From Sarcodiotheca gaudichaudii (lineage: Eukaryota > Rhodophyta > Florideophyceae > Gigartinales > Solieriaceae): a stretch of 25,713 nt of DNA. This document shows, in pieces, positions 1-25,491 of this stretch. Every line of letters starts with the position of its first letter. Position 1 is the stretch's first letter. A program made the translations under genes and the position numbers. The stretch is taken from assembly GCA_032355985.1 (NCBI GenBank), contig JAUKVZ010000022.1:1-25713 (forward strand), given 5' to 3'. The notes beneath the pieces were generated by a model. That model saw nothing but the letters and a program-made list of their open reading frames with translations, was not told where the DNA came from and did not search any database.

Positions 1-461
1 GGCATATGAGACATTTTCGCAAAAAACATTTTGGCCCACATTACACTATGGTTTTTTTTTTGCAATCGCACTGCATTACCAACACTGTACGATGTCATCT
101 CTGTCAATATTGCGCATACACACCCCAGTTACTGCGATATCACACAGTGCAATGCACTTACCTACTCATTTTGTCATTTTCGCATTGTCGAAGAAGAGGC
201 GGCATATGCATCTGCGCGCCAGCCAAATCGTATGCGCATCTTCTCCCAGAGGGACTTAGAAAAAATTAGAAATCAATTCCACTTTTTTTTTGTTTGCGTC
301 ATATCCAGAACATAAAGCAATGTGAATTAAGAAAAGGTTTCTACTGTTGAGAAGTTAAAGTTTGACATCACAACTAACTTTCGTCAAGTAGTAGTAGTAC
401 TAGTAGGTGTCTTTACACTGAAAAGAGACAAGCACAACATGCACCTAATAGGTAGCACGAT
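1..461. other. AT-rich left flank without a convincing gene
   Basis: No ORF here has protein-like composition. The stretch holds homopolymer T runs (about 51-61 and 282-291), a short GTA-repeat patch (about 389-406), and several TGCATTA/AATGCAC words (72, 148-157) that also cluster near the right end of the window. A 12-bp word at 39-50 followed by an 8-bp word at 83-90 recurs in inverted orientation and the same order near 25425-25491. It may contain a transposon end and the 3' flank of the leftmost gene. Confidence 0.4.
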
Positions 462-2576
462 CTAATCAAAGTCATCGTCGGATTCACTCTCAAGCTCATC
501 AGACGAATCTCCTCCGCACATTAAACCACTCACCACTACCTTATCACCTGCCGCCACATTTTTCTCGCCTGCCAGACCAACGGAATCAACAGGTTCTGTT
601 TTGAAGTAGTTGGACATAGGCGCATATTCTGTAGCAGTCTCGTCACCACTAACGATTTGTCCGATATTTGCATCCCGAACTACTCCCCACCAAGAACACA
701 CAAACAGGCATATGAATTCAGCGCTCCCTACGAGGTAGTCGGCGCCATCGGACGGTGAATATAATGCACGACTGTAAAAACGCGCGGCCGGCATGAAGAA
801 GTTATACCTGTGTATATCACTTGTCAGCATCGTCTTGCATGTACTATCGAAATCTGACCTCGCCTCACTCATCGACGACGTGACAATATCATCCTTACTA
901 CGAATATAAATGTCAGTATCTGCCCCGATGTCCTTCCTCTTCGCCTTCCAAGCCGAATACTCCGAGTAAAAGAAAGGACACTTCACTTCCACTAACCGCG
1001 CGTGCGGGATTTCGAGGAAGATTTCTCGAATGACACGTAGAAGATCCACACCGGCGTGACCGATAAGTGAGTTGTAAAGCGCGGACTGGGCATGAGAAGA
1101 AACGGAAACGTTGTGCATTAACTCCATCTTGCGACAGTGTATCCCAACAGCCCAATCTGTGTCCGCCTCTATGAGAGATCGGACTGAAGTATCACCGAGG
1201 ATTCTCTTCACAGCGATGTACTCCTCCTGCTTGGAGTTGGGTAGGGTGAATGATACCGGGTCTGATGCATGCTGCCCAACGTATATAATTTCACAGTCCC
1301 TTCCCAAGTAACCCTTCATTGCTACCCGGGCTTCGTATGTCCTGAACAGCCTATCCGCGAACGGCCCCGACTTCCTCATATCCAACTCAGTCGGCAAGAA
1401 ATCGTTGTTAATGTAGAACTCTTTTGAAACCAAGAGAGATAACGGTATGTTTGGAACTGCATCTCGGTAACCCACGCGAATCTTTCCTACTTGCGCCTGC
1501 AAAGCTTTAGAATTCTCAGCACTCACCATTCGCCAGCCACCGAACGTACCACCCCAGTCTTCAAACGACTTGGCGTGAGTGAATTTCCCAGGCGTAACTT
1601 CAACAGCATTGCCTGCGCCGAACTCATCGAACAATGTATCATACATTGATACAAGCTTATCGTCAGCTTTCAAGCAGCGATAGCGCTCAACCCGGTCAGC
1701 TTTCATGCGTTTCCCGATCCGTCCCGTAACGCACAAATTAGGGTCACTCTCCGCCAAGCGAAGAGCCTTCAATAGACCGGTAACGAATGGCTGCCGTAGT
1801 GTAGCCGAAGCAGCCACCATCTCTTTCCGCACCAGCCTCGCCAAGTTTTCACTGGAACACACGCTTCTTAGAAGAGTCTGCATGTAAGTCTCAACATCCT
1901 TCGGGGTCACTTCTTCACAGTCGGAAAGTGCTAACACCTTCATTCTCTTCTGCTTCTCCGCCATGGACTCATCCACACCACCCTTCTTCACCAAGCTATC
2001 TTTCCATGTCTTCATAGCTTGTTCCTTCAGCTTATCAGACACTAAAGCCGGATCATTCAGTGTGCTTCTGATTAACCGACGAATGAAACGATCTGAACCA
2101 AGACTTCCGAAGTTGTTGTGAGACGAGCAGGTAACCAAACCCTCATCGTCAAACTCCGGCGACCCGAAAGCGTGGTGATGCGGATCATCAACATTTAAAA
2201 TTCGCAAAGGGTTCCTGTCAACGTAACCAGTTAGAGTCCCGGTTCCATTGGCGACAGCATCTTCAACAGTGTGAGCTCCGACGAACAAGTCGGAGTGGGG
2301 CTGCGAAGAAAGAACTGTGGGACGCGGATTTTTGGAATCGTCGAATCCGATCAGGGGCACACCCCACCCCGAGAGAACCTGTTCAGGCGGCATAGCTCTC
2401 ACATGTCCATACGGCCCATCACCGACGTACTTCCTTTTCCGATACGGGTACTTGCCTAAAACCTTACTTTTCAGAGATGGATCTCGCCATTGCTCAAGAA
2501 ATACCTTTTCAACTAGCGAAAGAGACACTGTCGCGAACTCATACAACGAAGAATTTCTGAAGAGTAAAGATGCTAA
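462..2576 (-). CDS. YqaJ-like (PD-(D/E)XK) nuclease-domain protein
   Basis: About 700 aa. From the first possible codon of the open frame (2582), the C-terminal third (about residues 465-635) carries a pattern like YqaJ/lambda-exonuclease recombinases: GHAGVDLL about 20 residues before LVEVKCPFF (E532, K534), then a hydrophobic segment resembling the family's later strand/helix. The E-x-K with a following CP is the usual YqaJ signature. Such nucleases resect DNA ends in recombination and occur in viruses and large mobile elements. Residues 1-460 match nothing I recognise. The C-terminus is an acidic tail (SDELESESDDDFD). The start is unclear: the frame is open to a stop at 2604-2606, the first in-frame ATG is at 2393, and a good 3' splice site (pyrimidine tract, then CAG) lies at 2577-2579, so a short upstream exon is likely. 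It lies 89 bp downstream of the neighbouring minus-strand gene. The nuclease assignment is moderate; the exact family needs a profile search. Confidence 0.6.
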   Translation of the reverse strand, partial: LASLLFRNSSLYEFATVSLSLVEKVFLEQWRDPSLKSKVLGKYPYRKRKYVGDGPYGHVRAMPPEQVLSGWGVPLIGFDDSKNPRPTVLSSQPHSDLFVGAHTVEDAVANGTGTLTGYVDRNPLRILNVDDPHHHAFGSPEFDDEGLVTCSSHNNFGSLGSDRFIRRLIRSTLNDPALVSDKLKEQAMKTWKDSLVKKGGVDESMAEKQKRMKVLALSDCEEVTPKDVETYMQTLLRSVCSSENLARLVRKEMVAASATLRQPFVTGLLKALRLAESDPNLCVTGRIGKRMKADRVERYRCLKADDKLVSMYDTLFDEFGAGNAVEVTPGKFTHAKSFEDWGGTFGGWRMVSAENSKALQAQVGKIRVGYRDAVPNIPLSLLVSKEFYINNDFLPTELDMRKSGPFADRLFRTYEARVAMKGYLGRDCEIIYVGQHASDPVSFTLPNSKQEEYIAVKRILGDTSVRSLIEADTDWAVGIHCRKMELMHNVSVSSHAQSALYNSLIGHAGVDLLRVIREIFLEIPHARLVEVKCPFFYSEYSAWKAKRKDIGADTDIYIRSKDDIVTSSMSEARSDFDSTCKTMLTSDIHRYNFFMPAARFYSRALYSPSDGADYLVGSAEFICLFVCSWWGVVRDANIGQIVSGDETATEYAPMSNYFKTEPVDSVGLAGEKNVAAGDKVVVSGLMCGGDSSDELESESDDDFD

Positions 2577-2636
2577 CTGCAAGTTCGAAGAGAAAAGAAA
2601 AGGTCAGTACGACAGGCACTACTGAAGCGAATATAC
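2577..2636 (-). other. possible small 5' intron of the YqaJ-like gene
   Basis: Read on the minus strand, a run rich in C and T ends in CTTGCAG at 2577, just inside the open frame. A candidate donor GTATAT begins at 2636, directly after ATGATT at 2637-2642. Joining them would give a Met-Ile start in frame with the 700-aa ORF. The acceptor is convincing; the donor is weak, and the intron would be only 60 nt. Translation could instead start at ATG 2393. Confidence 0.3.
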
Positions 2637-2665
2637 AATCATTACATTAGTAACCTTGGTGTTGA

Positions 2666-4795
2666 CTACACCCAATATCCAAGCATAGAACGTACTGTCG
2701 ATAGAAGACCGCCATAATTTTCAACCTGCTCCAAAGCCTGAAGCTCTGCCCAAGTCGCGTCGCGTAGATCAACCTTTGAACGCGACTTCCTCTTATTGGG
2801 CTGGTGTACAGCATCACTCGCTGCACCTTTCGTTACTGCGGCGTACCGCCTTTTCCTGAGCGGAACATCGACTTGTTCCAGAGAGGACTTGGCGATAAAT
2901 ACCTTCAATGACTCCAATTCATGATTTGCAGTCTGTAACTTCGCTTCGCACAACTCCAATTCTATTTCGGTACGCCGCTGAGACTCTTCCAGTCGTGTAT
3001 TCAAAACAGCGTAGTTTTTTTCATTTCTTTCGTCCCTCCTCGACCTGGCCTCCAGAATTTCGATCGAGCGCTTCAATTCCCCCTTCATAGCCACACAGCC
3101 GGCATCCAAGCACCGACCGACCCTACGACGCTTAACAATATCTCCATCATTGCCGTACCCATTCACTTCGTCTTTTCCACTAATCGCATTTGAAGGCGAC
3201 GTTCCCGGCTCAATATCCCGTCCCACTTCAACTTCAGTTAGGAACAAGGGACGTGGGAGCGCCCGAGCCTTTCCAGTAGTACGTTCTGCATTCCCAAGAC
3301 CCATACCAGAACCAGTGTAGTCCCGAACCGGGGCATGGTAGCAACCACCACTACGCGCGGAGACGCCTGGAGTTACCTTCGGAATTTCGGAACCACCCAA
3401 CTCACGGGCAGGAGTAGAAAAAGAAGCATCACGATCTCTCTTCGACCTAGTCGTGAGCACCGCGACGGGTTCAGCTGGACGAATACAGGCAGCACTAACT
3501 TCGTTTTCCACTGCTGATGGAACTTGTGTTGAAGACTTACGATTACTTGCTTGCCGTGCATTGCGGCCGAGTTTTGGGCGCGAGGTTGTGGATAGTTTCG
3601 GAGGAAGTGGCTTGTGGTATGGCGAAGATTCAGTTCGCTTTTCCGTGTGTGGACCGCTGCCATTACCTGGTAAAATTTCCCCCGTAAAACATCTTTCACC
3701 ATTATCTCCTGATAAGTTGTCACTGCCTTGATGTCGACGGCTTCTCTTATTGGAAGGTATCTGAATAGGCAACTCGCCTAACTCGGAGTTAGCCTTGGCT
3801 TGGCTAAATTTCGCTTGAGTATCATGTTCTTGACGCGTCTTACACAAATCATTATTGCGATCATTGAAGCCACCCGAAGACTGGCCGCCCGTGAAATCAC
3901 CATCTCCCTCACCACGACGTCCCTCTTCTTCAAACTTTTCATCGCCTCCAACTTCGGTTCGCTTCTTCAAGATGTTCTCCTTGGCAGAGGTTCCACACTC
4001 GCCATCTTCACCAGGCTTGACGAACTTTGAAAGGACAGCTTCCTGTTCTATGACAGGCACGACCGGTGTCACCGCAGCAGTAGGCTCTTTCTCTCCCGGT
4101 CCTTGTTGCATCTTAGAACCTTGTCCCACGACAATATCAGGCGCCGACGTAATTTCAACATCTTTCGGTGCAGAGGGAGCATCCAACTTGTCTTCAAGCA
4201 CTTCAGGTTGAGACTGTGGAGTAATTAGAGGACCACCAGTGCGACTGCCACGTGCAACAGACGACAAATCATCGTGCGCGTCGGTGGTATCGTATGCTGT
4301 GTCACCGTCCATCTCCTTTTGAGAGAGGAAGTAGCCTTCGCGTTTGTGAACAGGCGTACGGACGAGTGGACTCGTCGTCGTAAGTTTGGACTGTACCTTT
4401 GAAGAAGAGGACTCATTGTCCTCAAATGACAATTTCGAACTGCGACGCTTCGATCTGGTAGACCGGCGTATAGGTTTCTCAAAACTGTCAAGACCATTCG
4501 CGGGAGTCTGACTGTCGACAATGCGCTTGCTTAGCGAAGTGGCAAGTTCTTGTTCGTTGACATGACGTGCACTATAGCTTGTGGACAAACCCCGACTAGC
4601 GCTGGACGGAAGATTCGCATCATGCGAGTGATGATCACTCACTGTCTCACTACCTTCAGCTGGTTCACCTTGCATTGAATGTGAAGGAGCCTTTACACCC
4701 TTCGAGGAACGGCGTTTGTCGAATGGCCTGCCACTCCCTTCGGACGCTCTTGAAGAACCACCCCTGGCAGCGCGTGACCTCCCACGCTTGGCCAT
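2666..4795 (-). CDS. disordered basic protein with C-terminal coiled coil, function unknown
   Basis: 709 aa from the ATG at 4795, which has an excellent context (A at -3, G at +4); the few codons upstream to 4810 lack an ATG. Residues 1 to about 540 are low-complexity and rich in Ser, Arg, Gly, Glu and Pro, with several basic clusters that look like nuclear localisation signals (MAKRGRSRAARGG at the start, RRSTRSKRRSSK, then KRRRVGR just before the coil). Residues about 565-635 have heptad-like spacing and high charge (LEARSRRDERNEKNY, LEESQRRTEIELELCEAKL), a likely coiled coil. A second basic patch (PLRKRRYAAV, NKRKSRSKVDLRD) and a short conserved-looking C-terminus follow. I recognise no family. 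It probably acts in the nucleus as a DNA- or protein-binding partner. It is transcribed away from the Ulp1-like gene across a shared 650-bp intergenic region. Confidence 0.65.
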   Translation of the reverse strand: MAKRGRSRAARGGSSRASEGSGRPFDKRRSSKGVKAPSHSMQGEPAEGSETVSDHHSHDANLPSSASRGLSTSYSARHVNEQELATSLSKRIVDSQTPANGLDSFEKPIRRSTRSKRRSSKLSFEDNESSSSKVQSKLTTTSPLVRTPVHKREGYFLSQKEMDGDTAYDTTDAHDDLSSVARGSRTGGPLITPQSQPEVLEDKLDAPSAPKDVEITSAPDIVVGQGSKMQQGPGEKEPTAAVTPVVPVIEQEAVLSKFVKPGEDGECGTSAKENILKKRTEVGGDEKFEEEGRRGEGDGDFTGGQSSGGFNDRNNDLCKTRQEHDTQAKFSQAKANSELGELPIQIPSNKRSRRHQGSDNLSGDNGERCFTGEILPGNGSGPHTEKRTESSPYHKPLPPKLSTTSRPKLGRNARQASNRKSSTQVPSAVENEVSAACIRPAEPVAVLTTRSKRDRDASFSTPARELGGSEIPKVTPGVSARSGGCYHAPVRDYTGSGMGLGNAERTTGKARALPRPLFLTEVEVGRDIEPGTSPSNAISGKDEVNGYGNDGDIVKRRRVGRCLDAGCVAMKGELKRSIEILEARSRRDERNEKNYAVLNTRLEESQRRTEIELELCEAKLQTANHELESLKVFIAKSSLEQVDVPLRKRRYAAVTKGAASDAVHQPNKRKSRSKVDLRDATWAELQALEQVENYGGLLSTVRSMLGYWV

Positions 4796-4800
4796 GCTTT

Positions 4801-5147: not shown

Positions 5148-5174
5148 GGCAGCGAGTTATTTTTACTAACTGCC
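5148..5174. promoter_or_regulatory. 27-bp palindrome, copy 1
   Basis: Begins GGCAGCGAG and ends CTAACTGCC with an AT-rich centre. It is exactly 27 bp, as are the copies at 9583, 9672, 15547, 15623 and 17012, and matches their majority sequence at about 21 of 27 positions with both five-base ends perfect. It lies in a divergent promoter, as expected for an operator or activator site. Confidence 0.6.
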
Positions 5175-6920: not shown

Positions 6921-8628
6921 CTAGTTTAAGGACAACCGGCAGTTAGATGAGCCGCATCGACAAGGAATCCTTGAATCTACGTCCTCGTAAGCGAACTTGT
7001 AGTCAAATAGCAACTCGTCTCCTGGTCGTAACGCCCTCTTCGAGTACAATACTATCTTAGGTGCACCATCCAATCTGATTATCTTGGCAATTAGATTAGG
7101 ATCGCAGGAGTGATTAATATACTTAGCCACTGACCCTTTCATAGTGGCGTCAACAACGAATTCGGAGTCCAAGCTGAACATATAGGATTCGCCAAGACCC
7201 TTAAGCAAGTAACTACGTTCTCTGATATCCGACACTGGTCGACGTATAACTTCCCCGACATACTCAACCACGAAATCTCCAACAGGCACACTTTCCATCG
7301 CGAATAACCCTATCCCCTGAACAGCGGACTTGCCCATGCATAGAGATATCTGCCTCTGATGCAAAGAAGAACTGGCAAGCACACTTGGCGAAAGACGAGA
7401 CCTTGCAACGGATCTCCGTAGAATTCTGCCATTCACCCGCGCATCACGTGAAGAACGTGGCTTGGATACTCCTCGGATCTTCCCACTGCCTTCATAACGC
7501 CCAATTAAAGACGACGGCGCAGCCCTGAACGGTCCCGATTGCTGGATTACCTTGCTCGCGCGGTGTGTCGCAATGTCAAGATACTGACATCTCATAGATG
7601 ACACCTCATTGACAGGCTGGGCAGATTCGTTCTTAACCGCAACGACCTCCTCACCATCTTGAGCTGAAATGTCAGAATACTTCAAAGTGTCGTTCCGTAG
7701 AGCGAAATAGACAATCTCCCAAGAATCACCCTGCTGAACCATGCCTTGCACGCGCTGCTGCTGGTTGGATACACGCAAAGTGCCACAAATTAATTTGTAA
7801 AACTCGGCCCTGTCTTCCACAGAATGGAAAAAACACACAAACGCGGTCTCCCCTAGCGCAGTGATGGCAATTGGATATGGTTCATCGGCCCCTTGCAAGC
7901 TCTGCTCAATTAATGACTCCAGCGAGCTCAGCTGTAAGGGGCGGGCCTCCCTTCTGAAAATGGACGCTTTGTCATGGACAGCCTGACCTACTTCCACAAC
8001 ATAGTAGTATACGCCGGTGATTACGGTTTGAGGGCGCATCTTCTCGCAGCTAGCGAAGACACTCACACGTTCTATCTGGACACTGTGCAATGATTCAGAA
8101 ACAGCGAGCAATGAAGGATAACGACACAGTCAGTAACTGTGCGAAGCAACACGCCGTTATTGATATTCTGCGTAGTAGTGTTCAATAGTAACGCGTTTGC
8201 AGGTAATGTCAATGTAGCTCACCTCCCCGTATACAAAGACTGAAGGTAGGTAGCAGCGACCTTTTGTCTTCCCGAATATCATTCCCTTTCTTTATGGAAC
8301 TTCCATTGAAGGGATGATTCAGTGCTAATCGGAATAAACGAGCCATCTAACCACAGGAAACCTACTTCCTGTTCCGTAATGCACGTAGCTCGCTATGCTC
8401 GTATCAACAATATTAACCGCGAAGAAGTGAAGGTATTAACAGCGCCGTACGTAGTGTGTGGGAAGGGGTTGCCTTGTGTACTTACCAATAATTCAGCAAC
8501 TCTTGATGTGTGGAAGTAAACCAAGTCTCAACAAAATCAAACCGCACGCCTGAAGCAGGGCCTTTTGCAATTATTACTGCAGGGGCAGGGGCTTCAAAAA
8601 GGTATTTTACGCCGACAAAGGTGAACAT
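6921..8628 (-). CDS. SET domain lysine methyltransferase, KMT2/SET1-like, two exons
   Basis: Transfers methyl groups from S-adenosylmethionine to lysine; the family usually targets histone H3K4. Exon 2 (8082-6921) alone gives 372 aa from ATG 8039. In that numbering the SET core lies at about 225-350: GKSAVQGIGLFAMESVPVG, VEYVGEVI, YINHSCDPN (N309-H310 bind the cofactor) and ELLFDYKF (Y347, catalytic). A complete post-SET zinc motif CRCGSSNCR with the typical LN end closes the protein (360-372). SRIPCRCGSSNCR and KIVLYSKRAL are closest to Set1/MLL proteins. An upstream exon is likely: donor GTAAGT at 8485, acceptor CACAG at 8083, matching phase, adding residues from ATG 8628 for 434 aa in total. 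Coding-like sequence continues upstream to about 8717, so there may be more. The N-terminal ~220 residues match no domain I know. Compared with real Set1/MLL it is very short and lacks RRM, PHD or FYR domains, suggesting a mobile-element passenger. Confidence 0.75.
8083..8485 (-). other. predicted GT-AG intron in the SET gene
   Basis: On the minus strand the exon ends TTATTG and the intron starts with the ideal GTAAGT at 8485-8480. The proposed 3' end is a C/T-containing run ending TTGCACAG at 8083. The phases agree: TG plus the next exon's T makes a Cys codon and the reading frame continues into the SET ORF. Without splicing, the upstream frame stops three nucleotides into the intron (8482-8484). 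Confidence 0.55.
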
Positions 8629-9582: not shown

Positions 9583-9609
9583 GCCAGTGGAGAAAATTTA
9601 GTCACTGCC
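9583..9609. promoter_or_regulatory. 27-bp palindrome, copy 2
   Basis: Starts GCCAGTGGAG and ends TTAGTCACTGCC; 22 of 27 positions match the majority form. It is preceded at 9555-9564 by TATCATACAC, a word that also precedes the palindrome at 15623 (at 15577-15586). The next copy begins 89 bp further on, so the sites form a pair as in the 15.5-kb region. Confidence 0.55.
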
Positions 9610-14081: not shown

Positions 14082-14091
14082 TGTGTTTGAT

Positions 14092-14317: not shown

Positions 14318-14327
14318 TGTTTGGTTG

Positions 14328-15573: not shown

Positions 15574-15622
15574 TTTTATCATACACCGTTGTGTAAGTAG
15601 GTAAATCGATTTTTCAGTAATG

Positions 15623-15649: not shown

Positions 15650-15873
15650 AACACGCCTTCCAGCAACCTCGTCATGTTACAGTCTGTGCTGTCCGAGTAC
15701 CGTCGTCGTTCACTTCGACTAGCAGTGGCCGTCATCCCCAGCTTCTGTCCCTCCGCTTCACACCTTCTTGTCAGGCGATCGAGGACAACGATGCCACGCA
15801 ATTAAACGACTACGAACAATGTAATGAGCGATCGTGAGCAATCGTCGCTGGTCGGCATGTAGTTGATGCGTGC

Positions 15874-16030
15874 GTGGGCGTCTCCCAGACGCCGGCTGAG
15901 GTCTTTGGCGGGTTAGCTCGTCGCGACGCGTCGCGCCGCGCCTTCCGCTCGCTCCTCATGCGATACGACGATGGTCTCGTGCGTGTGTGTCTCCCTGACG
16001 TCCGAGGAGGTCTTTGGCGGGTCAGCGCGT
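15874..16030 (+). repeat. short imperfect direct repeats in the inert copy
   Basis: A segment ending GAGGTCTTTGGCGGGTTAGC (about 15880-15916) recurs about 110 bp later, ending GAGGTCTTTGGCGGGTCAGC (about 15990-16026), both preceded by GTCTCCC-GACG. The tract 15853-16505 has no counterpart in the second unit and appears to be replacement or inserted DNA. Confidence 0.5.
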
Positions 16031-16504
16031 CCCTTCCATCGGCGCCGTACGTCCACGTAGGGGCCTCTGCCCGGCTGCTCATCTTCGCGCCGCCGAATTG
16101 CATAGTTCTGCTTGGCACCGCAGTGTGCGTTGGGACTGACCTTCTTGGCATGGCGCTGTTGGGCGCGTTTTAAATCGTGCTCAGGGTTAGCGAGCCGGGC
16201 GACGGGTACGCTTATGATGTGGTGGAAAGGATGTGGGCGAAAGAGGGCGAGCTTTGTGGCCGTACTGCGGTTTACCGTCGGGGAGCTGTGTCGGACGCAT
16301 GCGGGTATATTTCATCCTGCCGCCACGCTGAGGGGACCGGACGGGAAGGGTTGCAAGGAGCTATGTGTTGTGCCGAAGCTGAAGGTGGAGGATGATGATG
16401 CCGAGGGAGTTGATGTAATGGATGAAGGGGATGGCGATGGCAAGGGAGAGGGTGAGGATGGGAAGAGTGCCAGGAATGCGCCACCGGTGTATGCGCCGGT
16501 GAAG

Positions 16505-16935
16505 TCGCTGAGGAAAGGAGTGACGTCGCCGGCAATACAAGCGTCCGCAAGGACGGGAAGGTGTCCGAAATTGGTAGCGAGATCATCTCAAACCCCCATC
16601 CTCCTGACCGCGTAGCGATGATGTAGCCGCTGGCGAGAGCGCGCGACGCCGCGTTGGATCCAAGGTCCGGCGCGCATGATACTTCGGCTGTAGACGACGA
16701 TGCAATCGCTGGGGTGGGCGGATAGGTTGCCGGGATAACGAGCTATGTGTTTCTGGCGGCGGACAGCGCTCCCAAGCAGCCTCTGGCAGGCATTGCTGTC
16801 GCAGCGCCCGCTCAGAAGGCTGGCTATGTAGGTGCCGGCGCTGAGAGTGGTGGCGAGAATGGAAAGGAGGAGGTTGGTACTGGCGTGCGAAACACGCCTT
16901 CCACCGATCCGATGGGTGGAGCCACTGCGCTGGGA
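16505..16935 (+). repeat. 5'-coding repeat, copy B1 (degenerate)
   Basis: Aligns with 17612-18040, which encodes the Ala/Gly-rich repeat region of the 2092-aa protein. For example, GACAGCGCTCCCAAGCAGCC is identical in both. Here the frame is interrupted, so it is a decayed partial copy. It ends about 10 bp before copy A2 begins, giving the order A1-(insert)-B1-A2-B2. Confidence 0.75.
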
Positions 16936-16946
16936 CCTCACGGCGT

Positions 16947-17300
16947 TGACCATTGCTGTCTACTGCCGTGTACAGATGACATGACACGGGATGTTCACTG
17001 TATTCCAATGGGGCGGCGAATAAATTTTATTCGCTGCCCTTCATCATAACCTTTGTGTAAGCAGGTCAATCAATTTTTCCGAATGGGCAGTGCCAACGGG
17101 CCTTACATCAACCTCGTCGTGTTACAGTCTGTGGTGGCCGAGTACCGTCGTCGTTCACTTCGAGTAGCAGTGGCCGTCAACCCAAGCTTACCTGCCCCCC
17201 TCCCCTTCACGCCTTCTTGTCAGGCGATTGAGAACAAGGGAGCCACTCAATTAAACGACTAAGAACAAAGTAATGAGCGATCGTGAGCAGTCGTCGCCGG
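16947..17300 (+). repeat. promoter/5'-end repeat, copy A2 (productive)
   Basis: Second copy of the A unit, running into the true start of the 2092-aa gene at 17273. It carries one complete 27-bp palindrome (17012-17038) and a nine-base remnant (17086-17094). Confidence 0.8.
17012..17038. promoter_or_regulatory. 27-bp palindrome, copy 6
   Basis: Starts GGCGGCGAATAAATTTTATT and ends CGCTGCC; 24 of 27 positions match the majority form. It is about 235 bp upstream of the ATG of the 2092-aa gene, the closest full copy to a start codon. Confidence 0.6.
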
Positions 17301-20300
17301 CCGCAACGGTAACGGATGATGTCGCAGGCAAGGCGGAGCTACTTGCGACTGCGCCCGCGGTTACTTCCAGAGACACGCCTGTCCTCGACGTTGCGGTTGC
17401 GCCAACGCCATCCATTCCCGCTCCGTCGCTTGGCGACCAGGCCCCGCATAACGAACGAAAATGCGCTTCCGACGAAGGCGAAGATACACCAAACCTCGTC
17501 GACCCCGCGGTTGGGCTACCGTCTTCGACTGAGGACTTCGCTCGCTTGGAAATTACCGCGGCTGGAAGCTCCACCAAGCTGCCGCATCCCAGCGCCGCGG
17601 GCGGGGCGTCAGAGGAGGCGGAAAGAAGTGATGTCGCCGGCAATACAAGCGGCCGCAAGGACGGGACGGAGTCCGAAATTAGTGGCGAGAACATTTCAAA
17701 CACACCTCCTCCTCATGGCTTAGCGATGATGGAGTCGCAGGCGAGCGCTCGTGACGCCGCGTCGGCTCCAAGGTCCGGCGCGCATGATACTTCGGCTGAA
17801 GACGGCGATGCAATCGGTGGGGTGGGCGGATCGGTTGCTGGGAGAACGAGCTCTGCGTTTATGGCGGCGGACAGCGCTCCCAAGCAGCCTCTGGCCGGCA
17901 TTGCTGTCGCAGCGTCCGCTCAGAAGGCTGGCGATGAAGGTGCCGGCTCTGGGAGTGGTGGCGAGGATGGAAAGGAGGATGTTCGTACTGGTGTGAGAAA
18001 CACGCCTTCCACCGATACGATGGGTGGCGCCGCTGCGCAGCCGCCTGCCGGTGTTACCGAGACAGCGGTAGTTGGGAAGGCCGTTGAGAGTGTCGGCGGT
18101 GGTAAAGACAAGATCGGGGCGGAAGTGGCTGGCGAGAAGGCGACTTCTATGCCTCCGCCGATTGACGGGCCACCAGAGCAGCCCCATGCCCGCGGCGCGG
18201 TCGCGGGTTCTACTAATGAGGCCGGTAGCGCTGACGATGGCGCCTCCCCCGAGGGGAACGATGGGAAGGGGCTGCCGCAATCGGGCCCGCGGTTCAGGTC
18301 AGCTCCTTTACCGATTCTTACGGCGAAGAAAGCGTCTGCTCAGAAGGGTGGTCCGGTGGGGCCTACACAGGGAGATGAATCTAAGTCTGAAGGTAGGCTT
18401 CTATCAGGGGCTGCGGCTGGAGAAGATGCTGCGGCCGGGATCAGTTTATTGGACACAAGCGCCGGTCAGGGGCCTGCCGCCGTTGCTAATACGGAAATTA
18501 CAATTCCTATTGACGGTCCGGATGAGATCGCTAACTTGCCAGTGGTGGAGATACACAAGCTTATGGCTGATGTGTCCGAAGATGAGGAGGAACCTCTTCG
18601 GAATAGAAACCAGCCTGGTCCAGTTAGAGGCAGTACTCCAATTCCGGATCGAACTTCCGTTTTGTCGTCGCGTGGGCGCTCGCGTGCGAAATCCCGCCCT
18701 GGTCTTCCTGATCCTCGCGATGGTGGATCAGTTGTCAGACCGCGTACAAGGCGCACCTCTCGTGGAGATCCTGAACGGCGCAGTGCACGAGGCGAGGTGG
18801 GTGGTTCTGGAAGTGATATTGGTGGAGCTGGACAGTTGCTCACTGGTGATGATGCTTCCGCGGATGAATTGGAAGCGATGAAAGTAGGTGGAGATGTCGC
18901 CGCGGAAGTGGACGAAGTAATTTTTAATGAGACTGGTGCGGCCGGTGGTAGTGAAGCGCCGTCTGCGTTTTACACTACCGAAGAAGTTGCTGCATCTGTG
19001 AGGGCTCTAAGAACACCTCTGGGATGGGAGGGGCCCGATCTTGGACGGGATTATGATTCGAAGACACACCAAAAGAACCAGAATCGACGGGGTGTGTTCT
19101 GGCGTGTAGTGGTTGAAGAAATTAACATAACCAGATGCACGAACTCGGCCAGTATTGACAAATGGCAGTTCTCCGCCATCGACGACAGGCCTCTTGTGCG
19201 TGGTGGAACAGGGCAGCGACCGGTGGTCAACACTGGTTTGAAAAACCTGGATCTCTTTACCCTCTGTAGCAATATCACCATGCTTAAGATGGAGCACTGC
19301 ACAGATACGACTAGAAAAATGGTCTCATACGCCGCACGAGAGGACAAGTACTTCGTAGACAATGCCGATTTCGCGGTCTGCGTGAGTGGAGCGCGTAACT
19401 TGGAGGCGCTGAGGACGAAGATGAGCTTGGGAGACTTTTTCTCTTGCAAGTTTTTGGTACCCGAGCCGCAGGGTCTTCGCAACATGGAGAATGAAGTCGG
19501 GTCTAATGTTTATGGTTTTAGCCCGCAGGAGGTGCAAAATGCCGCGTTGATTTTGCAGTCTGGCGACTCTGACTCACGACGGGTAACACTGGTGGAGCAC
19601 CTCGCGCAATTGCAGTATGCGTACGGGTCCGCTGTGCTCACAGCTAAAACGCCTGCACATCGATTGAACGAGGGGAGACAGTCAAAACATCGGCTCGTTA
19701 AAGAAGGACTGGCTGATGAGGATCTGGTTGGAAAGATCGTGCCATGGTTTCCAAGATTCGGAGTTGATATGGTCGGGGTTGACAAAGCTCTGTATCAGAG
19801 ATGTCTGCAGCAGTTGTTCGCACAACGCGACAGTGTTGTCGGAAGTGAGGCTGTGAGGCGCGCCGCCCTTGGGGACGAGGTTCTGACGAGGGAGCTTCAT
19901 GACGTTTTGACAGTGTCAGAAAGGGGGACCGTATTGGCAGAGGAGAAGAGAATTCTGAGGCAAGCGAATTGTGGGGTTGCTGTGACAACTTTGAAGAGTG
20001 TGCGGGACTTCCTGAATAACAGTATAGGATGCTCGAACTTCCAGGGTTTACTAGTTTCCATACTGGACGTACACCCGAATTTCTTCACATTTGCCACCTT
20101 AATCTCAAAGAGGACGTTCTATCGCTTGAAGGGTGATTATGCAAAGAGTCTGGCGTTAATGCTGATTTACAAAGGTTATGTCGGTTTGACCGCCAGTGCC
20201 GAAGGGCAGAGTTTGGAAGACAAGCAAGCCTCGTTCTTAACATACTCAAGCATTTCGGGTATTATTGATCGGGTCGTTGATTACCTCCATCGGCTGCAGA

Positions 20301-23300
20301 ACTGCTGGGTCGTTGCTTGTGATGCCGCAGACGGTGATTCCGATGCCGTGGCAGCGATTAATAAGATTGGTGGAGCTTTACCTATGACTGGCAGGGACGC
20401 AGAAGGTGTGGAAAAGAAATTCTTAGTACCCATGGCGTTCGTTTATGCTTTGGGTGACCAATTCACACAGGACCTGTTGAATGTCAGCAAACAAACTCCT
20501 CTGCTGGAAATGACCCCACGTGAACACAACAATGAACTCGAACCTCTTGTGGCTCAGTCTAAGTCCTTCGCTCAGACGTTCTTGTGTTATGCTCTGAATG
20601 AAACAATCGAGACCGACAAAGGGTTCGAAAACGTGGAACTTGGTGATCTGGTTGGAATCGAAGTACCAAAGACCTTGGCGGAGGACATTGTGACCAAGCG
20701 GAGTATTGCCAGTGGGGAGAGGGGTAAGAGAGTAAGGAAAAGGGGTTCTTCAAGCGTTACGAAGAAGCCGCCAGCTCCCGTACCGACTGACCCCGCCCAG
20801 TATCGGGCTGAGACCCAACGTCTGAAAAAACAGAAGAAAGCTGAGGAGCTCGCCCGTGCTCTGGAAGCTACGACCGCATCAAGGATACCCGGACCTTCCG
20901 ATCTGCATCGTGCTAGACTTGTACGGCGAGGTGTTCAGATAGGAGATTTGGTCCCAGCTCTAGATTCGGGTCCTGTAGTTCCTGCCCCTGGAGTACTCAG
21001 CTCGGAGGACCTTGCTGGCCAAGTTTCTGTCACCTCTGCCGGGTCCGCAGCTCAGCTCGTTACATCTCTGCCGAGTCCCAGCGCTGAAGGATCCGCTGTA
21101 CCGGTAGACGGGGTTATAGAAGCCGGATTAACCGCTTCTAATTTGCCAGTGCCAGATACTGTCAAACCAAGTGGGCCACCGCCGGTGGTGACGGTGCTGC
21201 CGGGCGTTTCGAATCGCGACGCCGTAACCCCACTTGCAGGTCCAGGTCCGGAAAAGGCATTGGCCTTGCCTGTCCCTGACGGATCCATCCCTGTTGTAAT
21301 TGGATCGGGGTCTGGACTTGCTCCGACTGTATCCGATGCTTTGCCAGATGGAAAGGGGGCGGCATCATCATCACCTCGACTTACCCCCGACTACGTATGG
21401 GCGAGTCTGGTGGGTTCATTGCCTGCAGACTCTGTTCTTTTGCCGGCCAACGACCCGGTCCCAGAAGGTCAAGAAGCGTTGTATAAGGTACTTGCTAACC
21501 TGTCTCTTCAGACAGAGGTTACGTCCGCGTCGTATCCGCCATACAACAGTGACTTGCGGAAAGGTTCGTATGCGCTTTGGAAGCGTGCTGTCGACGCAGA
21601 TCAAAAGTTGGAGGCCGATTTACTGCCGGCGTACTTCTTTGAGTTAGAAGCATTTGTTCGAACTCACGGTTTATTCAGTTCAATTCTTGATGGTCGTGGT
21701 ACTACTCCAGAATCTGTTACTGCTATGGTGAAGTCTCTCCGTCTCGTCAAGCTGTTCGATCTATGGGCAGATGACCAGGGCAAGCGCTATGCTGAGGAAA
21801 TGTCGTTTGACGGTATTTACCTCACGCGGTCCCTGCTTGCTCGGAAAATGAAGCAGAGTGTTGCGTCTGGCGCTACTTCAGTTGCTAATCTTCAGCTATG
21901 TTGGGGTAGTGGTGGCGGTGATGTGCATCCTTTCTTCAGTGATGCTCTGCATGGTGCCTTGGGTCTTTTCTATGGGCCTGCTTTGAGTGCGTGCATCGCA
22001 GTGAGGTCCATGACGGAAGAAAAGATGTGGTCAGCGTATGTCGGAGGCTCCACCAAGGCACACCGCGATCTAGGTCCAGCTCTGGGATTAGATTGCAGCA
22101 GTGATTGGTTTGATAAGAAGTTCCCGACGGTTGACATTCGCCGGCGTCATCATCGAATGTTTACCATGTGTCTAAGGGGAAGTCAGGTTGGAAGGATTGG
22201 TGGGCAAGGCACCTTCAGCAGCTTGAACGGTCGGTTAAGTACTGCCTCTGCATGGAATTACGACGATGTGCATGGCAGTTTTTATAGCGTTGATTCTGTG
22301 ACTGTAGCGGGTGAACGCCTGTTTGAGCTCATCATTTCCGTGGCTGCAGAAGTTTACGTGGATTTGTTCGGTGCATCAGGTGGTGATATTGGAGTGGAAG
22401 TTTCAATCCCGCATAAGTTGGGATGCGAAGCATCATACCATTGGCTCGTACCGGACATGGATAATACTTTCTCTGTCGGAGAAGATGCTGGCAAAGATCA
22501 GATGGGGTCAGGATACTTCCAGAAAGTTACTGTGTATAGTGACCGGGTTGTTGGGAACATGCGCCATTTCGTCACTACGCGAAGATACGGTCTGGCGAAG
22601 GGCGACATTAACGCTGCTGATCCAGATTTGGTTCCGCCGACAGGCGTGTGTCGTGTTGGCGAAGAGCTCTTCGGTGGCAGTGTCGACGTCACGATTCTTG
22701 TGCGTGATGATAGCAATTGCGGCGGATGGAACACCGCAGGTATCCGCCCTTTCGATTACAGTGGTACTGGGGGTTTCGCCTTCCTCAGTGTATTTCTTGC
22801 AATGACTCGGCTGGAAGATCTCGAGATCCTCGGTAGTCAAGTATTCTTCCCTCACTTGATGCAAGCGCTGTCCAGGGAGGCGGGTTACTACGAGGTTGTG
22901 GATGATTTGTTGGATATAGGCGATCGCAGTGGTTTCGGCTTCTTGTCCATGAATGTTTTGTGTCCGTCTGTTGTAAGGCAGGTTCTGGCTGTTGGTGGAA
23001 TGGCGTCGAACGAGAAAGATGACAACGTCGGTTCTGGTTTTTCGATGTCTATGCCGCTTCTAACAAGTCCAGCTGGCACAGGTATCGGTTGTGGGAGTTA
23101 TTACGAGGGTTCTACTACTAGTAGTGATGATCGGCTTGATCTCGTTGGGGGAAGTGTCATCGTGCAGCCTTTGCGTTGGGGTATTGATTGTGGGAGCTTT
23201 GTATGTTCATCGGGAAATTTGGGCGTTGATTTATGTCAGAGAAGGCAGGCTTCCTTGCAGACTGGTAACACATTCATTGGTGTATCTGTCCCGCCGGACG

Positions 23301-23551
23301 CTTGGATGCCTCTTCTGGAGTTTGGTGAGGGTGAGGACCACGCCCTTCACTTGGACCTCGTGGAAGTTTCCGGATCCCGTAATGTATTGCCGACAGACAT
23401 CCGGCGTCGTTGTATTAGTGGCCCTGTGAACACGAACTTTGAATTCTTTCAGGGTGGTGGTGTACTGCTTGCTCGCCGATCGTCAGTCAATTGGGCTGTG
23501 AGCTCAGCGTTGGTTGCTCCTGTACTGACATGGGAGTTGCGCTGGAAATAA
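17273..23551 (+). CDS. giant 2092-aa protein of unknown family
   Basis: A single uninterrupted frame from ATG 17273. Visible architecture: residues 1-130 Ala/Pro/Ser-rich; about 137-333 contain four degenerate ~45-aa repeats with a recurring QPxAGxAVA...KAG...G..GKE pattern; an RS/basic patch at about 463-520; a first globular region at about 570-1150; a Lys/Arg-rich helix (RLKKQKKAEELARALEA) at about 1180-1205; a Pro/Val/Ser-rich linker at about 1220-1370; and a second globular, beta-rich, Gly-rich region at about 1375-2092. I recognise no enzyme motif, zinc finger, helicase or polymerase signature and no signal peptide or membrane segment. The size, two globular halves and intact frame suggest a constrained function, perhaps structural or DNA-binding. 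The 5' part is duplicated upstream in a decayed copy. It is the largest gene of the window and the only long plus-strand gene on the right side. Confidence 0.75.
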   Translation: MSDREQSSPAATVTDDVAGKAELLATAPAVTSRDTPVLDVAVAPTPSIPAPSLGDQAPHNERKCASDEGEDTPNLVDPAVGLPSSTEDFARLEITAAGSSTKLPHPSAAGGASEEAERSDVAGNTSGRKDGTESEISGENISNTPPPHGLAMMESQASARDAASAPRSGAHDTSAEDGDAIGGVGGSVAGRTSSAFMAADSAPKQPLAGIAVAASAQKAGDEGAGSGSGGEDGKEDVRTGVRNTPSTDTMGGAAAQPPAGVTETAVVGKAVESVGGGKDKIGAEVAGEKATSMPPPIDGPPEQPHARGAVAGSTNEAGSADDGASPEGNDGKGLPQSGPRFRSAPLPILTAKKASAQKGGPVGPTQGDESKSEGRLLSGAAAGEDAAAGISLLDTSAGQGPAAVANTEITIPIDGPDEIANLPVVEIHKLMADVSEDEEEPLRNRNQPGPVRGSTPIPDRTSVLSSRGRSRAKSRPGLPDPRDGGSVVRPRTRRTSRGDPERRSARGEVGGSGSDIGGAGQLLTGDDASADELEAMKVGGDVAAEVDEVIFNETGAAGGSEAPSAFYTTEEVAASVRALRTPLGWEGPDLGRDYDSKTHQKNQNRRGVFWRVVVEEINITRCTNSASIDKWQFSAIDDRPLVRGGTGQRPVVNTGLKNLDLFTLCSNITMLKMEHCTDTTRKMVSYAAREDKYFVDNADFAVCVSGARNLEALRTKMSLGDFFSCKFLVPEPQGLRNMENEVGSNVYGFSPQEVQNAALILQSGDSDSRRVTLVEHLAQLQYAYGSAVLTAKTPAHRLNEGRQSKHRLVKEGLADEDLVGKIVPWFPRFGVDMVGVDKALYQRCLQQLFAQRDSVVGSEAVRRAALGDEVLTRELHDVLTVSERGTVLAEEKRILRQANCGVAVTTLKSVRDFLNNSIGCSNFQGLLVSILDVHPNFFTFATLISKRTFYRLKGDYAKSLALMLIYKGYVGLTASAEGQSLEDKQASFLTYSSISGIIDRVVDYLHRLQNCWVVACDAADGDSDAVAAINKIGGALPMTGRDAEGVEKKFLVPMAFVYALGDQFTQDLLNVSKQTPLLEMTPREHNNELEPLVAQSKSFAQTFLCYALNETIETDKGFENVELGDLVGIEVPKTLAEDIVTKRSIASGERGKRVRKRGSSSVTKKPPAPVPTDPAQYRAETQRLKKQKKAEELARALEATTASRIPGPSDLHRARLVRRGVQIGDLVPALDSGPVVPAPGVLSSEDLAGQVSVTSAGSAAQLVTSLPSPSAEGSAVPVDGVIEAGLTASNLPVPDTVKPSGPPPVVTVLPGVSNRDAVTPLAGPGPEKALALPVPDGSIPVVIGSGSGLAPTVSDALPDGKGAASSSPRLTPDYVWASLVGSLPADSVLLPANDPVPEGQEALYKVLANLSLQTEVTSASYPPYNSDLRKGSYALWKRAVDADQKLEADLLPAYFFELEAFVRTHGLFSSILDGRGTTPESVTAMVKSLRLVKLFDLWADDQGKRYAEEMSFDGIYLTRSLLARKMKQSVASGATSVANLQLCWGSGGGDVHPFFSDALHGALGLFYGPALSACIAVRSMTEEKMWSAYVGGSTKAHRDLGPALGLDCSSDWFDKKFPTVDIRRRHHRMFTMCLRGSQVGRIGGQGTFSSLNGRLSTASAWNYDDVHGSFYSVDSVTVAGERLFELIISVAAEVYVDLFGASGGDIGVEVSIPHKLGCEASYHWLVPDMDNTFSVGEDAGKDQMGSGYFQKVTVYSDRVVGNMRHFVTTRRYGLAKGDINAADPDLVPPTGVCRVGEELFGGSVDVTILVRDDSNCGGWNTAGIRPFDYSGTGGFAFLSVFLAMTRLEDLEILGSQVFFPHLMQALSREAGYYEVVDDLLDIGDRSGFGFLSMNVLCPSVVRQVLAVGGMASNEKDDNVGSGFSMSMPLLTSPAGTGIGCGSYYEGSTTSSDDRLDLVGGSVIVQPLRWGIDCGSFVCSSGNLGVDLCQRRQASLQTGNTFIGVSVPPDAWMPLLEFGEGEDHALHLDLVEVSGSRNVLPTDIRRRCISGPVNTNFEFFQGGGVLLARRSSVNWAVSSALVAPVLTWELRWK
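17612..18040 (+). repeat. 5'-coding repeat, copy B2
   Basis: The in-frame counterpart of 16505-16935, lying inside the 2092-aa gene (residues about 114-256). Its frame is intact while B1 has decayed, which suggests selection on this copy. Confidence 0.7.
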
Positions 23552-23811: not shown

Positions 23812-25086
23812 TTCTTCTTATTGATTCGAGACATACAAGAAGTATATGAACAGATATGAGTTTATCCCAGAAGTTCCGTGATGCTGTCATATTCGTTCAT
23901 TTACAGTACACACCGTGTACAAAATATGTGACAAGACACGTCATTCAGTGGAAAGTAGACGACGACGGTCACGACCTGAGGTGGTTTAACCATACCATAC
24001 CGTCTCGACCCAGGCCTATCGCAACTCGTCGGTACGGACTGGCCATCCCGGCCTAGTACGCAATGCTTCGGACAAGCTCCGCCGTTGCTTGTGTCGAACA
24101 TATGCCTACACGACGCGGCAATTGATGTGGCGCCATGCAATTTATTGCTGTCACTGACTGAACTGGAAGTTTCGGCAATTGGTGTAGGTCACCAGGCGGG
24201 TCTTTTGTGTAAGTTCGAAGACTATCGCGTTCGGGTTTTACTTTCCTGACTTTCCACTTGGCATCACGTACTGACCTTGTTCCGAAGAAGAGTCTTCTTT
24301 CATCCTATTTCTTAATTGCGTAGATTGCCCGGCAGTGAACCCTGTCATGCACCAGTGATGTGAAGTAAGAATCATTCTGAGACATATTTGAACATGGCGG
24401 CGCCATTGTCAAATATATCATTCACAAGCGTCTGCGTACGATTGAGGCTTCTAACTTTTTTCCATCCTTCCCTACTATCCTTTCGTATTCGCAGTGTTGC
24501 TTGAGAACGTGGCGCGTTCGACAACCATCACCTTCACCGTGAAGATGTTCGATACTAGTCATGCCTTCAAGGCATGGTCAAGTTGACACAGAATGTCTAA
24601 TGTACGTAATGCGCGCGCAGTTGGATCATTGCAGCGCGGTGTTACTGTATGCCACTGACATTTCTAACTTTTCCTTGTCTCTGATAATCTGGCTTCTTGT
24701 TTTCTGGCGCTCTCTGGCTACGTCAAGTATTAAGGAAGTGCAGCGTCCCAGTGCTTCGTTTCGACTATAGGGGGTCAAAGTCGATGGTGCCTGTGTGAAG
24801 CGGGGGATTGGGTCTACTCGTCCAGAGTACTGAGATGGGAGGCGACGGAGTGCGGGTGAGATGTAGTGGGATCGGCTGGGTTAGTTGGGGATGGGCTTTT
24901 GTTGCTGGTGGCGGTAACGCAGTTTTTTTGTACTTTCTCTGCTCTACCTTTTACGTGGAGGTGGTTTAGTTTTAGTAGGTCCATCTTTCGTGTGATTGCG
25001 TTGTTTTCGCTTGTGTTGATACGTATGTTGCTAGTAGTCAGGTCTGGCTTGACCAGGCCGTTCAAGAAATAAATCGGAAAGCCTTA

Positions 25087-25305
25087 TTAGACCATTTCTT
25101 TGCAATTCGTTGCCTGTATCATTTTCGCGAGAAATCGTCGCATAGTCCTATGCGAACTGGAGATGTACGTGTGCTTACGTCGCATCTCAGTATGCCTTAG
25201 ATTATATCGGATGGCATCTTCCCATGCGCGGAAGTGATTACGATTTTTACCTAAATACATTATCATGTGCACCAAACAATGTGTGTCGAAGACATGAAGG
25301 TTCAT
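25087..25305 (-). CDS. possible small 72-aa ORF
   Basis: ATG at 25305. The peptide is rich in basic, aromatic and His residues. It contains FRAWEDAIRYNL, superficially like the W-x-x-x-I-R-x-N-L core of forkhead DNA-binding domains, followed by MRRKHTY. No other forkhead landmark is visible and the ORF is short, so chance is quite possible. It could also be an exon. Confidence 0.2.
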   Translation of the reverse strand: MNLHVFDTHCLVHMIMYLGKNRNHFRAWEDAIRYNLRHTEMRRKHTYISSSHRTMRRFLAKMIQATNCKEMV

Positions 25306-25424
25306 AACGCATACTCAAATGTGGGCACGGCAGACTGATATGTGGAAAGGTTCATACTGTATTGTGTCTGGCAGGAGGCGTTTACAAACAGAAATGTGAA
25401 AATGTCAAAAAAAATGTACGTAAT

Positions 25425-25491
25425 GTACAGTGCTTGCATATGGCCCGAAAACTGCATACGATAAAAAAATCTGTATCGACATAGTGTAATG
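25425..25491 (-). repeat. possible right terminal inverted repeat segment
   Basis: Read on the minus strand, CATTACACTATG (25491-25480), a T run, then CACTGTAC (25432-25425) repeats the order of the same words at 39-50, 51-61 and 83-90 on the plus strand. The spacing differs (59 against 44 bp from first word to last) and the sequence between is not clearly alike. This is a weak candidate for one end of a ~25.4-kb element. Confidence 0.3.

What the first reader, a model, noticed from the sequence alone, without database searches (positions are those of the whole stretch)
39..25491. Candidate giant Plavaka-like DNA transposon carrying nuclease, SUMO protease and histone-methyltransferase-like genes
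Seen: in about 25 kb there is a Plavaka-type transposase (D470, D571, E800), a YqaJ-like nuclease (E532-x-K534), a Ulp1 protease with a full catalytic set, a SET1-like SET plus post-SET protein, and three proteins of unknown family (709, 331 and 2092 aa), with long intact frames. Known: Plavaka/KDZ-type elements are large, and related fungal elements travel with chromatin enzymes (TET/JBP). Ulp1-type proteases are common passengers. Inference: one autonomous element whose cargo alters chromatin and SUMO marks at its site and processes DNA ends. The combination with SET and the 2092-aa protein is, to my knowledge, not described.
Basis: partly seen in the sequence, partly recalled or inferred. 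Interest (0 to 1): 0.82.

Follow-up and report, generated by a model that had tools for sequence, protein, structure and literature searches.

The report
Giant jumping gene carrying histone methyltransferase
This stretch looks like one unusually large (about 25 kb) cut-and-paste transposon of a eukaryote that carries, besides its transposase, a SET1-type histone methyltransferase gene and a SUMO-protease gene, as if it brought its own tools against silencing; big elements of this kind are already reported, but I found no report of the SET1 cargo.

Summary
The sequence observation largely holds. Seven very long frames are real; three carry significant Pfam domains: Plavaka transposase, Ulp1 protease, SET (closest solved chains are Set1, E 2e-44).

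Corrections: the transposase triad is D302-D470-E800, not D470-D571-E800. The 'YqaJ nuclease' is one motif without Pfam or PDB support. The 709-aa and 'nuclease' ORFs are probably one spliced gene, so there are about six genes.

New: a 27-bp palindrome occurs six times, always outside the long frames. A decayed tandem duplicate beside the intact 2092-aa frame suggests selection on that frame.

No second copy, empty site or host genome could be examined: none is held, and scans of viral and prokaryote collections gave no protein relatives. Published precedents: enlarged 16-20 kb, 4-5-ORF EnSpm families in a red alga and 'Plavaka giant repeats' in Amoebidium. I file this as a new variant of that kind, whose SET1 probably keeps its chromatin active (inferred, untested).

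The parts
37..38 (.). left target-site duplicate CA (2 bp) if the element begins at 39
   Evidence: same dinucleotide CA at 25492-25493; 1 in 16 by chance
39..50 (+). left terminal inverted repeat CATTACACTATG
   Evidence: exact 12-bp inverted match to 25480-25491; a match of 12 or more in 2, 1 and 8 of 1000 shuffles for three choices of end length
462..4795 (-). Gene A, probably one spliced gene: exon 1 2696-4795, intron 2577-2695 (119 bp, donor GTACGT, pyrimidine-rich acceptor TTGCAG), exon 2 462-2576; 1404 aa; low-complexity N-part, C-part with VEVKCPF motif; family unknown
   Evidence: frames, splice model (predicted, no RNA); no Pfam family over cut-off and, for the part 462-2603, no PDB match
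5148..5174 (.). 27-bp palindrome, copy 1, between divergent gene A and Ulp1 gene
   Evidence: 33.5 bits
5446..6801 (+). Ulp1/SENP-type SUMO protease gene (C48), catalytic motifs intact
   Evidence: Pfam 2.9e-19, SENP1 chains 1e-14, motifs
6921..8628 (-). SET1-type histone methyltransferase gene: exon 6921-8082, possible intron 8083-8485 (GTAAGT donor), upstream exon ending at 8486, frame open to 9072, nearest in-frame ATG 8628; SET and post-SET; Phe where Set1 has Tyr (LLFDYKF against LTYDYKF)
   Evidence: splice model (predicted; the upstream frame did not stand out in the codon scan)
9583..9609 (.). 27-bp palindrome, copy 2, upstream of the SET gene
   Evidence: 31.5 bits
9672..9698 (.). 27-bp palindrome, copy 3, upstream of the SET gene
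   Evidence: 35.7 bits
10476..14081 (-). Plavaka-type DDE transposase, 1201 aa; D302, D470, C485-x2-C488, H775-x4-H780, E800; zinc-finger-like N-end by eye
   Evidence: Pfam PF18759 1.8e-18, fragments, motifs
14102..15323 (-). gene of unknown family (331-aa ORF); probable C-terminal exon 14102-14277 gives 374 or 388 aa
   Evidence: frame; splice options (predicted; exon coordinates worked out from its indices)
15481..16945 (.). decayed tandem duplicate of the promoter and N-terminal part of the 2092-aa gene (stops in frame)
   Evidence: 88.8% identity over 419 bp (16512-16930 against 17620-18038)
15547..15573 (.). 27-bp palindrome, copy 4
   Evidence: 36.6 bits
15623..15649 (.). 27-bp palindrome, copy 5
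   Evidence: 34.1 bits
17012..17038 (.). 27-bp palindrome, copy 6 (duplicate of copy 4), upstream of the 2092-aa gene
   Evidence: 37.8 bits; duplication
17273..23551 (+). 2092-aa protein of unknown family; low-complexity N-terminal quarter (by eye)
   Evidence: no Pfam, NCBIfam or PHROG family over cut-off; no PDB match for the whole or for 18860-20401, one chance-level match (E 0.92) for 21443-23551
25480..25491 (-). right terminal inverted repeat CATAGTGTAATG
25492..25493 (.). right target-site duplicate CA

Best explanation
The window holds one large cut-and-paste DNA transposon (about 39-25491) of the Plavaka branch of the EnSpm/CACTA group in a eukaryotic genome. Shown: a Plavaka-type transposase with a consistent D-D-C2C-H4H-E set, a SET1-like gene, an Ulp1 gene, large genes of unknown family, a matching 12-bp inverted end pair with CA..TG termini and a possible 2-bp duplication, and six copies of one 27-bp palindrome in the gaps between genes. 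Inferred: the transposase cuts at the 12-bp ends and pastes with a 2-bp stagger. The palindromes are a common control site through which one protein (perhaps the element's own 2092-aa or 1404-aa protein) switches the genes on. The SET1-like enzyme, with Phe at the Phe/Tyr switch, trimethylates H3K4 on the element's nucleosomes, and the Ulp1 protease strips SUMO from silencing factors or from the transposase, so that the element stays expressed.
For: Domains. Triad and C2C/H4H order as in the CMCT clade: against PMC12730594. Ends CATTA..TAATG with CA flanks resemble published PlavakaB ends CATCA..TGATG with 2-3 bp duplications. The two 400-bp ends share 13 inverted 8-mers (the 12-bp pair included) against a null mean of 3.2, reached in 0 of 300 random controls, and 8 direct ones, reached in 11 of 300. 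Palindrome: six copies at 31.5-37.8 bits, next site 5.3, best of 100 shuffles 15.3, six of six outside the seven long frames. The scoring matrix was made from these six copies, so the gap is partly built in; the six-copy family was found independently. Frame upkeep: a neutral simulation at half the duplicate's divergence gives 10 stops on average in 2092 codons and none stop-free in 500 runs; the real frame has none. Precedents for large multi-ORF elements of this group; for Ulp1 in CACTA elements.
Against: Only one copy seen; no genome held. No relatives in five viral-contig protein scans or one GTDB protein scan, collections that hold few eukaryotes. The inverted pair is short, one of 28 exact inverted 12-mer pairs in the window (about 20 expected by base arithmetic). 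A second parse (CACTATG ends with TA duplicates) fits too. No palindrome lies directly before the transposase gene. A shared palindrome could be a host-wide promoter element. The stop-free argument weakens if the gene diverged less than its duplicate: at an eighth of the divergence 33 of 500 runs had no stop. Nothing shows that SET1 or Ulp1 acts on the element.
Confidence: 0.58

Rival explanations
1. Ordinary host DNA: a smaller Plavaka transposon (for example the transposase gene with its neighbour 14102-15323) lies beside host SET1, Ulp1 and other genes, and the 12-bp inverted pair is chance.
For: SET1 and Ulp1 are general eukaryotic genes (recalled); the pair is one of 28 such 12-mer pairs; no second copy was seen.
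Against: Host SET1 proteins are usually much longer (recalled). The end pair is the outermost of the 28, starts with CA, has matching CA flanks and encloses all the long frames. The same palindrome stands in three gene gaps across 12 kb. No smaller pair of ends with fitting flanks was noticed, but it was not searched for systematically.
Confidence: 0.22
2. A cluster of several mobile elements: repeated insertion of different elements builds a gene-rich island flanked by a Plavaka element, as described for Amoebidium giant repeats, rather than one unit that moves together.
For: [quoted passage not shown] The right flank carries further GCATTAC (25545) and TAATGCA (25561) words like those at the ends.
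Against: No tyrosine-recombinase family among the seven proteins at E up to 1. Little internal repetition apart from one tandem duplicate, the palindromes and a 54-bp repeat.
Confidence: 0.14
3. Remnant or relative of a large DNA virus or a virus-like element (Polinton type) that carries a transposase; the 2092-aa protein would be a structural protein.
For: Large frames of unknown family with few introns; an Ulp1-like protease is also a Polinton-type gene (passage); chromatin enzymes are reported in giant viruses and their insertions (passages).
Against: No polymerase, integrase, packaging ATPase or capsid family over cut-off among the seven frames; PHROGs none for four of the seven; no relatives in viral contigs for five proteins; predicted introns.
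Confidence: 0.06

Closest known systems
Enlarged EnSpm/CACTA families of Chondrus crispus (Kojima, Bao, Jurka 2013, Repbase Reports 13:2577-2613; not seen, cited in PMC6431247)
   Same: EnSpm-group transposons far larger than usual, with several ORFs (16-20 kb, 4-5 ORFs)
   Different: Here 25.4 kb and about six genes. The ORF contents of the Chondrus families could not be read here, so SET1 cargo may or may not be among them. The host of this window is unknown.
Plavaka giant repeats of Amoebidium appalachense (PMC11244446, passages)
   Same: Plavaka transposase with intron-poor genes over tens of kb; hits of the cargo named in red algae and dinoflagellates
   Different: Described as tandem clusters with many tyrosine recombinases; none seen here. 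No SET or Ulp1 cargo is named in the passages I read.
TET/JBP-carrying fungal transposons, including PlavakaB (PMC12730594)
   Same: Same transposase group, similar end words and duplication size, passenger enzyme proposed to fight silencing
   Different: Passenger is a DNA dioxygenase there, a histone methyltransferase here
CACTA and Mutator elements of plants with Ulp1 domains (PMC2528002, passages)
   Same: Ulp1 passenger in the same broad transposon group (five grapevine CACTA families)
   Different: Plant elements with Tnp2-type CACTA transposases
SETMAR (SET plus mariner transposase, primates; PMC9062482, listing only)
   Same: SET enzyme and a transposase together
   Different: A fusion of a methyltransferase with one mariner-type transposase, not a mobile element that carries a separate SET gene

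Membership tests
Plavaka transposons | Plavaka transposase domain (Pfam PF18759) | tested here: met
   E 1.8e-18, 67.3 bits against cut-off 26.3
Plavaka transposons | D, D, then C(2)C and H(3-4)H before the last E (PMC12730594) | tested here: met
   D302, D470, CNVC 485-488, HKMRSH 775-780, E800. D302 and D470 lie inside regions that Pfam aligns, D302 as the catalytic one by recalled motif; E800 by motif only (the fragment around it gave no Plavaka match).
Plavaka transposons | Termini TGT..ACA (A) or CATCA..TGATG (B) | tested here: inconclusive
   CATTA..TAATG, one letter off type B at each end
Plavaka transposons | 2 or 3 bp target-site duplication | tested here: inconclusive
   CA/CA at the chosen ends, TA/TA with another parse; one copy only
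CMCT clade (EnSpm/CACTA group) | 5'-CA..TG-3' termini, 2-5 bp duplications in most cases | tested here: met
   CA..TG and 2 bp under both parses; borders themselves rest on one copy
KDZ (Kyakuja-Dileera-Zisupton) | KDZ transposase domain | tested here: not met
   no KDZ row for any of seven proteins at E up to 1; that Pfam holds a KDZ model is recalled
Polinton/Maverick or large DNA virus | protein-primed polymerase, integrase, packaging ATPase, capsid protein | tested here: not met
   none among the Pfam rows of the seven proteins; only an Ulp1-like protease is shared
Starship | DUF3435 tyrosine recombinase | tested here: not met
   no such row for the seven proteins
SET1/MLL (KMT2) histone H3K4 methyltransferases | SET and post-SET of the Set1 type | tested here: met
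   best PDB matches are chains named H3 lysine-4 specific, 2.1e-44, aligned from residue 209 to the end; NHSCDPN (NHCCDPN there), DYKF and the post-SET cysteines align. No tree was built.
SET1/MLL (KMT2) histone H3K4 methyltransferases | methylates H3K4 | not testable with these tools
   needs a bench assay
YqaJ exonucleases | YqaJ domain | tested here: not met
   no YqaJ row at E up to 1 for the whole protein or up to 10 for fragments; no PDB match. Only the motif VEVKCPF. A very distant relative could be missed.
Ulp1/SENP C48 proteases | C48 domain with His, Asp, Gln, Cys | tested here: met

The most novel reading that the evidence does not exclude
An autonomous transposon carries its own writer of an active chromatin mark: a SET1-type H3K4 methyltransferase, tuned to trimethylation by the Phe at its Phe/Tyr switch, brought to the element by a regulator that binds a 27-bp palindrome repeated in its gene gaps, together with a SUMO protease. 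It would be the histone-side counterpart of transposons that carry TET/JBP dioxygenases.
Probability: 0.27. Interest if true: 0.75.

Novelty: new variant of a known kind. Interest (0 to 1): 0.5.

Why it matters
If confirmed, it shows a DNA transposon that writes an activating histone mark for itself. That would make it testable whether mobile elements resist silencing by adding active marks as well as by removing repressive ones. A defined palindrome gives a handle for finding the recruiting protein. If the genes prove to be host genes, the finding is ordinary.

Tried and rejected
No genome is held for the window, so copy number, empty sites and host could not be examined. Five of the seven frames were used in viral-contig scans: transposase, 462-2603, 2092-aa, SET and Ulp1. 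2, 3, 8, 4 and 14 stretches matched a peptide pattern, and none was a relative by tblastn. GTDB contigs with the transposase: 24 pattern matches, no relative. Frames 2666-4891 and 14328-15386 were used in no collection scan. The palindrome pattern gave nothing in viral contigs. In GTDB contigs it gave two bacterial stretches (Neobacillus, Flavobacterium); about 0.2 would be expected with even base use (my arithmetic), and their surroundings were not examined; I take them as unrelated. tblastn of the transposase against phages: no match.

ColabFold models without an alignment for 462-2576 and 21443-23551 had mean pLDDT 33.8 and 31.6, so no fold search was run. NCBIfam gave weak matches to bacterial effectors for the Ulp1 and SET proteins, far below cut-off; I read them as shared catalytic domains. 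PHROGs: none for four proteins. Rfam: none. Tandem Repeats Finder: none. A YqaJ search in one bacterial genome gave no match and added nothing. The codon scan listed the probable last exon of the 331-aa-ORF gene but not the frame upstream of the SET exon. It also listed six stretches of no clear meaning, so it is weak evidence either way.

Considered and rejected: D571 as catalytic residue; Polinton, Starship and KDZ membership; reading frames 462-2603 and 2666-4891 as two genes (less likely, since 462-2603 has no ATG in its first 70 codons and a good acceptor lies at its start). That the host is a red alga is only an analogy with the cited papers and was not tested. Passages of PMC12633428, PMC8226300 and PMC4455052 were looked at and gave nothing decisive.


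Full report
Check of the observation. The window has seven stop-to-stop frames of 352 to 2098 aa; at the window's stop frequency the expected number of frames so long is 0.0035 for the shortest and 1e-31 for the longest. Pfam gives three domains over cut-off: Plavaka transposase, Ulp1 C48 and SET. The other four frames have no family over cut-off in Pfam or NCBIfam. PHROGs was searched with four of the seven frames, the transposase among them, and gave none.

Transposase. Counting from the ATG at 14081, Pfam places residues 270-353, with D302 in AYSD, on profile positions 85-170 (E 0.0023 for that fragment alone), and the stretch with D470 on positions 180-300 (E 3.3e-14). CNVC at 485-488 and HKMRSH at 775-780 follow, then E800 in FETSH. 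That D302 is the catalytic one in its aligned stretch rests on a recalled motif; the fragment around E800 gave no Plavaka match. A weak match to the CACTA family tnp2 (E 0.04, under cut-off) covers the D470 stretch.

Borders. CATTACACTATG at 39-50 is matched exactly and inverted at 25480-25491. Shuffled ends gave a match of 12 or more in 2, 1 and 8 of 1000 trials (first 60 against last 250 bases, 100 against 290, 300 against 300). The whole window has 28 exact inverted 12-mer pairs; this one is the outermost. The flanks read CA on both sides. PMC12730594 gives CATCA..TGATG with 2-3 bp duplications for PlavakaB and CA..TG for most of the clade. A second parse, ends CACTATG with TA duplicates, is also possible. 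The first and last 400 bases of the element share 13 inverted 8-mers, the 12-bp pair included, against a null mean of 3.2 (0 of 300 controls), and 8 direct ones (11 of 300 controls). I call the borders plausible, not proven.

Gene models. Frame 462-2603 has no ATG in its first 70 codons. A 119-bp intron, 2577-2695, with donor GTACGT and acceptor TTGCAG joins it in frame to frame 2666-4891 as one 1404-aa protein. The SET frame can be joined in phase to an upstream exon ending at 8486 (donor TTG|GTAAGT, acceptor before 8082), with a nearest ATG at 8628 and an open frame to 9072. Against this, that upstream frame did not stand out in the codon scan and has no Pfam match. The 331-aa ORF probably gains a last exon 14102-14277. 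All are predictions without RNA. The genes are thus about six: gene A (-), Ulp1 (+), SET (-), transposase (-), the 331-aa-ORF gene (-), the 2092-aa gene (+).

SET protein. phmmer against the PDB puts chains 6ven_N and 6bx3_E, named H3 lysine-4 specific, first (2.1e-44, 3.5e-44). They align from residue 208-209, before the SET domain proper, and for 6ven_N to the very end. NHSCDPN (NHCCDPN in the chains), DYKF and the post-SET cysteines align. Where those chains read LTYDYKF this protein reads LLFDYKF. That position is the Phe/Tyr switch, where Phe favours trimethylation in MLL1 (recalled, no call). So it is a SET1-type enzyme by sequence; activity is untested and no tree was built.

Gene A. 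The nuclease claim rests on the motif VEVKCPF only. YqaJ does not appear in Pfam at E up to 10 for fragments, nor any PDB chain at E up to 10. A single-sequence fold had pLDDT 33.8 and cannot be used.

Palindrome. A 27-bp palindrome, consensus GGCAGTGAATAAATTTTATTCACTGCC, stands at 5148, 9583, 9672, 15547, 15623 and 17012. Scores are 31.5 to 37.8 bits, the next site in the window 5.3, and the best of 100 shuffles 15.3. The matrix was made from these six copies, so the gap is partly built in; the family itself was reported independently. All six lie outside the seven long frames: between gene A and Ulp1, upstream of the SET gene, and between the 331-aa-ORF gene and the 2092-aa gene. The copy at 17012 is a duplicate of 15547, so five are independent. 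None lies directly before the transposase gene. It may be a control site of the element or a host promoter element; this cannot be told without the genome.

Duplicate. The promoter and N-terminal part of the 2092-aa gene are duplicated upstream: 15481-15854 with 16946-17303, and 16512-16930 with 17620-18038 (82.5% and 88.8% identity). The upstream copy has two stops in the frame of the gene within the 419 bp. The 47 differences fall evenly on codon positions (17, 17, 13), so this low-complexity part shows no residue-level constraint. If the gene had drifted freely at half that divergence it should have gained about 10 stops, and 0 of 500 simulated copies had none; at a quarter of the observed divergence 1 of 500 and at an eighth 33 of 500 had none. 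So the frame has probably been kept by selection, if both copies diverged at like rates. The two stops in the duplicate are no more than drift gives (2 or more in 21% or 7% of runs, by assumption).

How it probably works. Shown: the gene set, the transposase motifs, the end pair, the palindromes. Inferred: the transposase cuts at the ends and inserts with a 2-bp stagger. The SET1-like enzyme marks the element's chromatin with H3K4 methylation; PMC9406493 (passages) ties this mark to active transcription and reports MLL2 activity as apparently needed for expression of young L1 elements. The Ulp1 protease removes SUMO from host silencing proteins or from the transposase. A protein that reads the palindrome may tie these together. 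The last three steps are guesses from family knowledge.

Known kin. PMC6431247 (passages) states that Chondrus crispus has enlarged EnSpm families of 16-20 kb with 4-5 ORFs, citing Kojima, Bao and Jurka 2013, which I could not see. PMC11244446 (passages) describes Plavaka giant repeats up to 50 kb in Amoebidium, many of whose genes encode tyrosine recombinases with hits only in distant lineages, red algae and dinoflagellates among them. PMC2528002 (passages) reports Ulp1 domains in five grapevine CACTA families. PMC12730594 describes TET/JBP cargo in fungal transposons, Plavaka included. In the listings of ten paper searches and the passages I opened, I saw no transposon described with its own SET1-type gene; SETMAR, a SET-mariner fusion, is the nearest (listing only). 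Those searches cover openly licensed papers only, not Repbase Reports.

Limits. The host is unknown. No related element was found in viral contigs by five protein and two motif scans or in GTDB contigs by one protein scan; one motif scan there gave two bacterial stretches that I did not follow. These collections are mostly not eukaryotic, so the absence says little.

Noticed in passing
15481-16945 and 16946-18038: Tandem duplication of the 2092-aa gene's promoter and N-terminal region; the upstream copy is decayed and has an extra stretch with a 54-bp direct repeat (15869-15922 / 15978-16031).
   Followed up: yes
25492-25713: Right flank has further GCATTAC (25545) and TAATGCA (25561) words like those at the ends, and a minus-strand frame 25580-25711 that could be the C-terminal end of a neighbouring gene; no Pfam match for it.
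   Followed up: partly
8486-9580: Minus-strand stretch upstream of the SET exon, partly open and G+C-rich, with an ATG near 9550 just below the palindromes; exon structure unresolved.
   Followed up: partly
23552-25479: About 1.9 kb without a long frame between the 2092-aa gene and the right end, function unknown.
   Followed up: no
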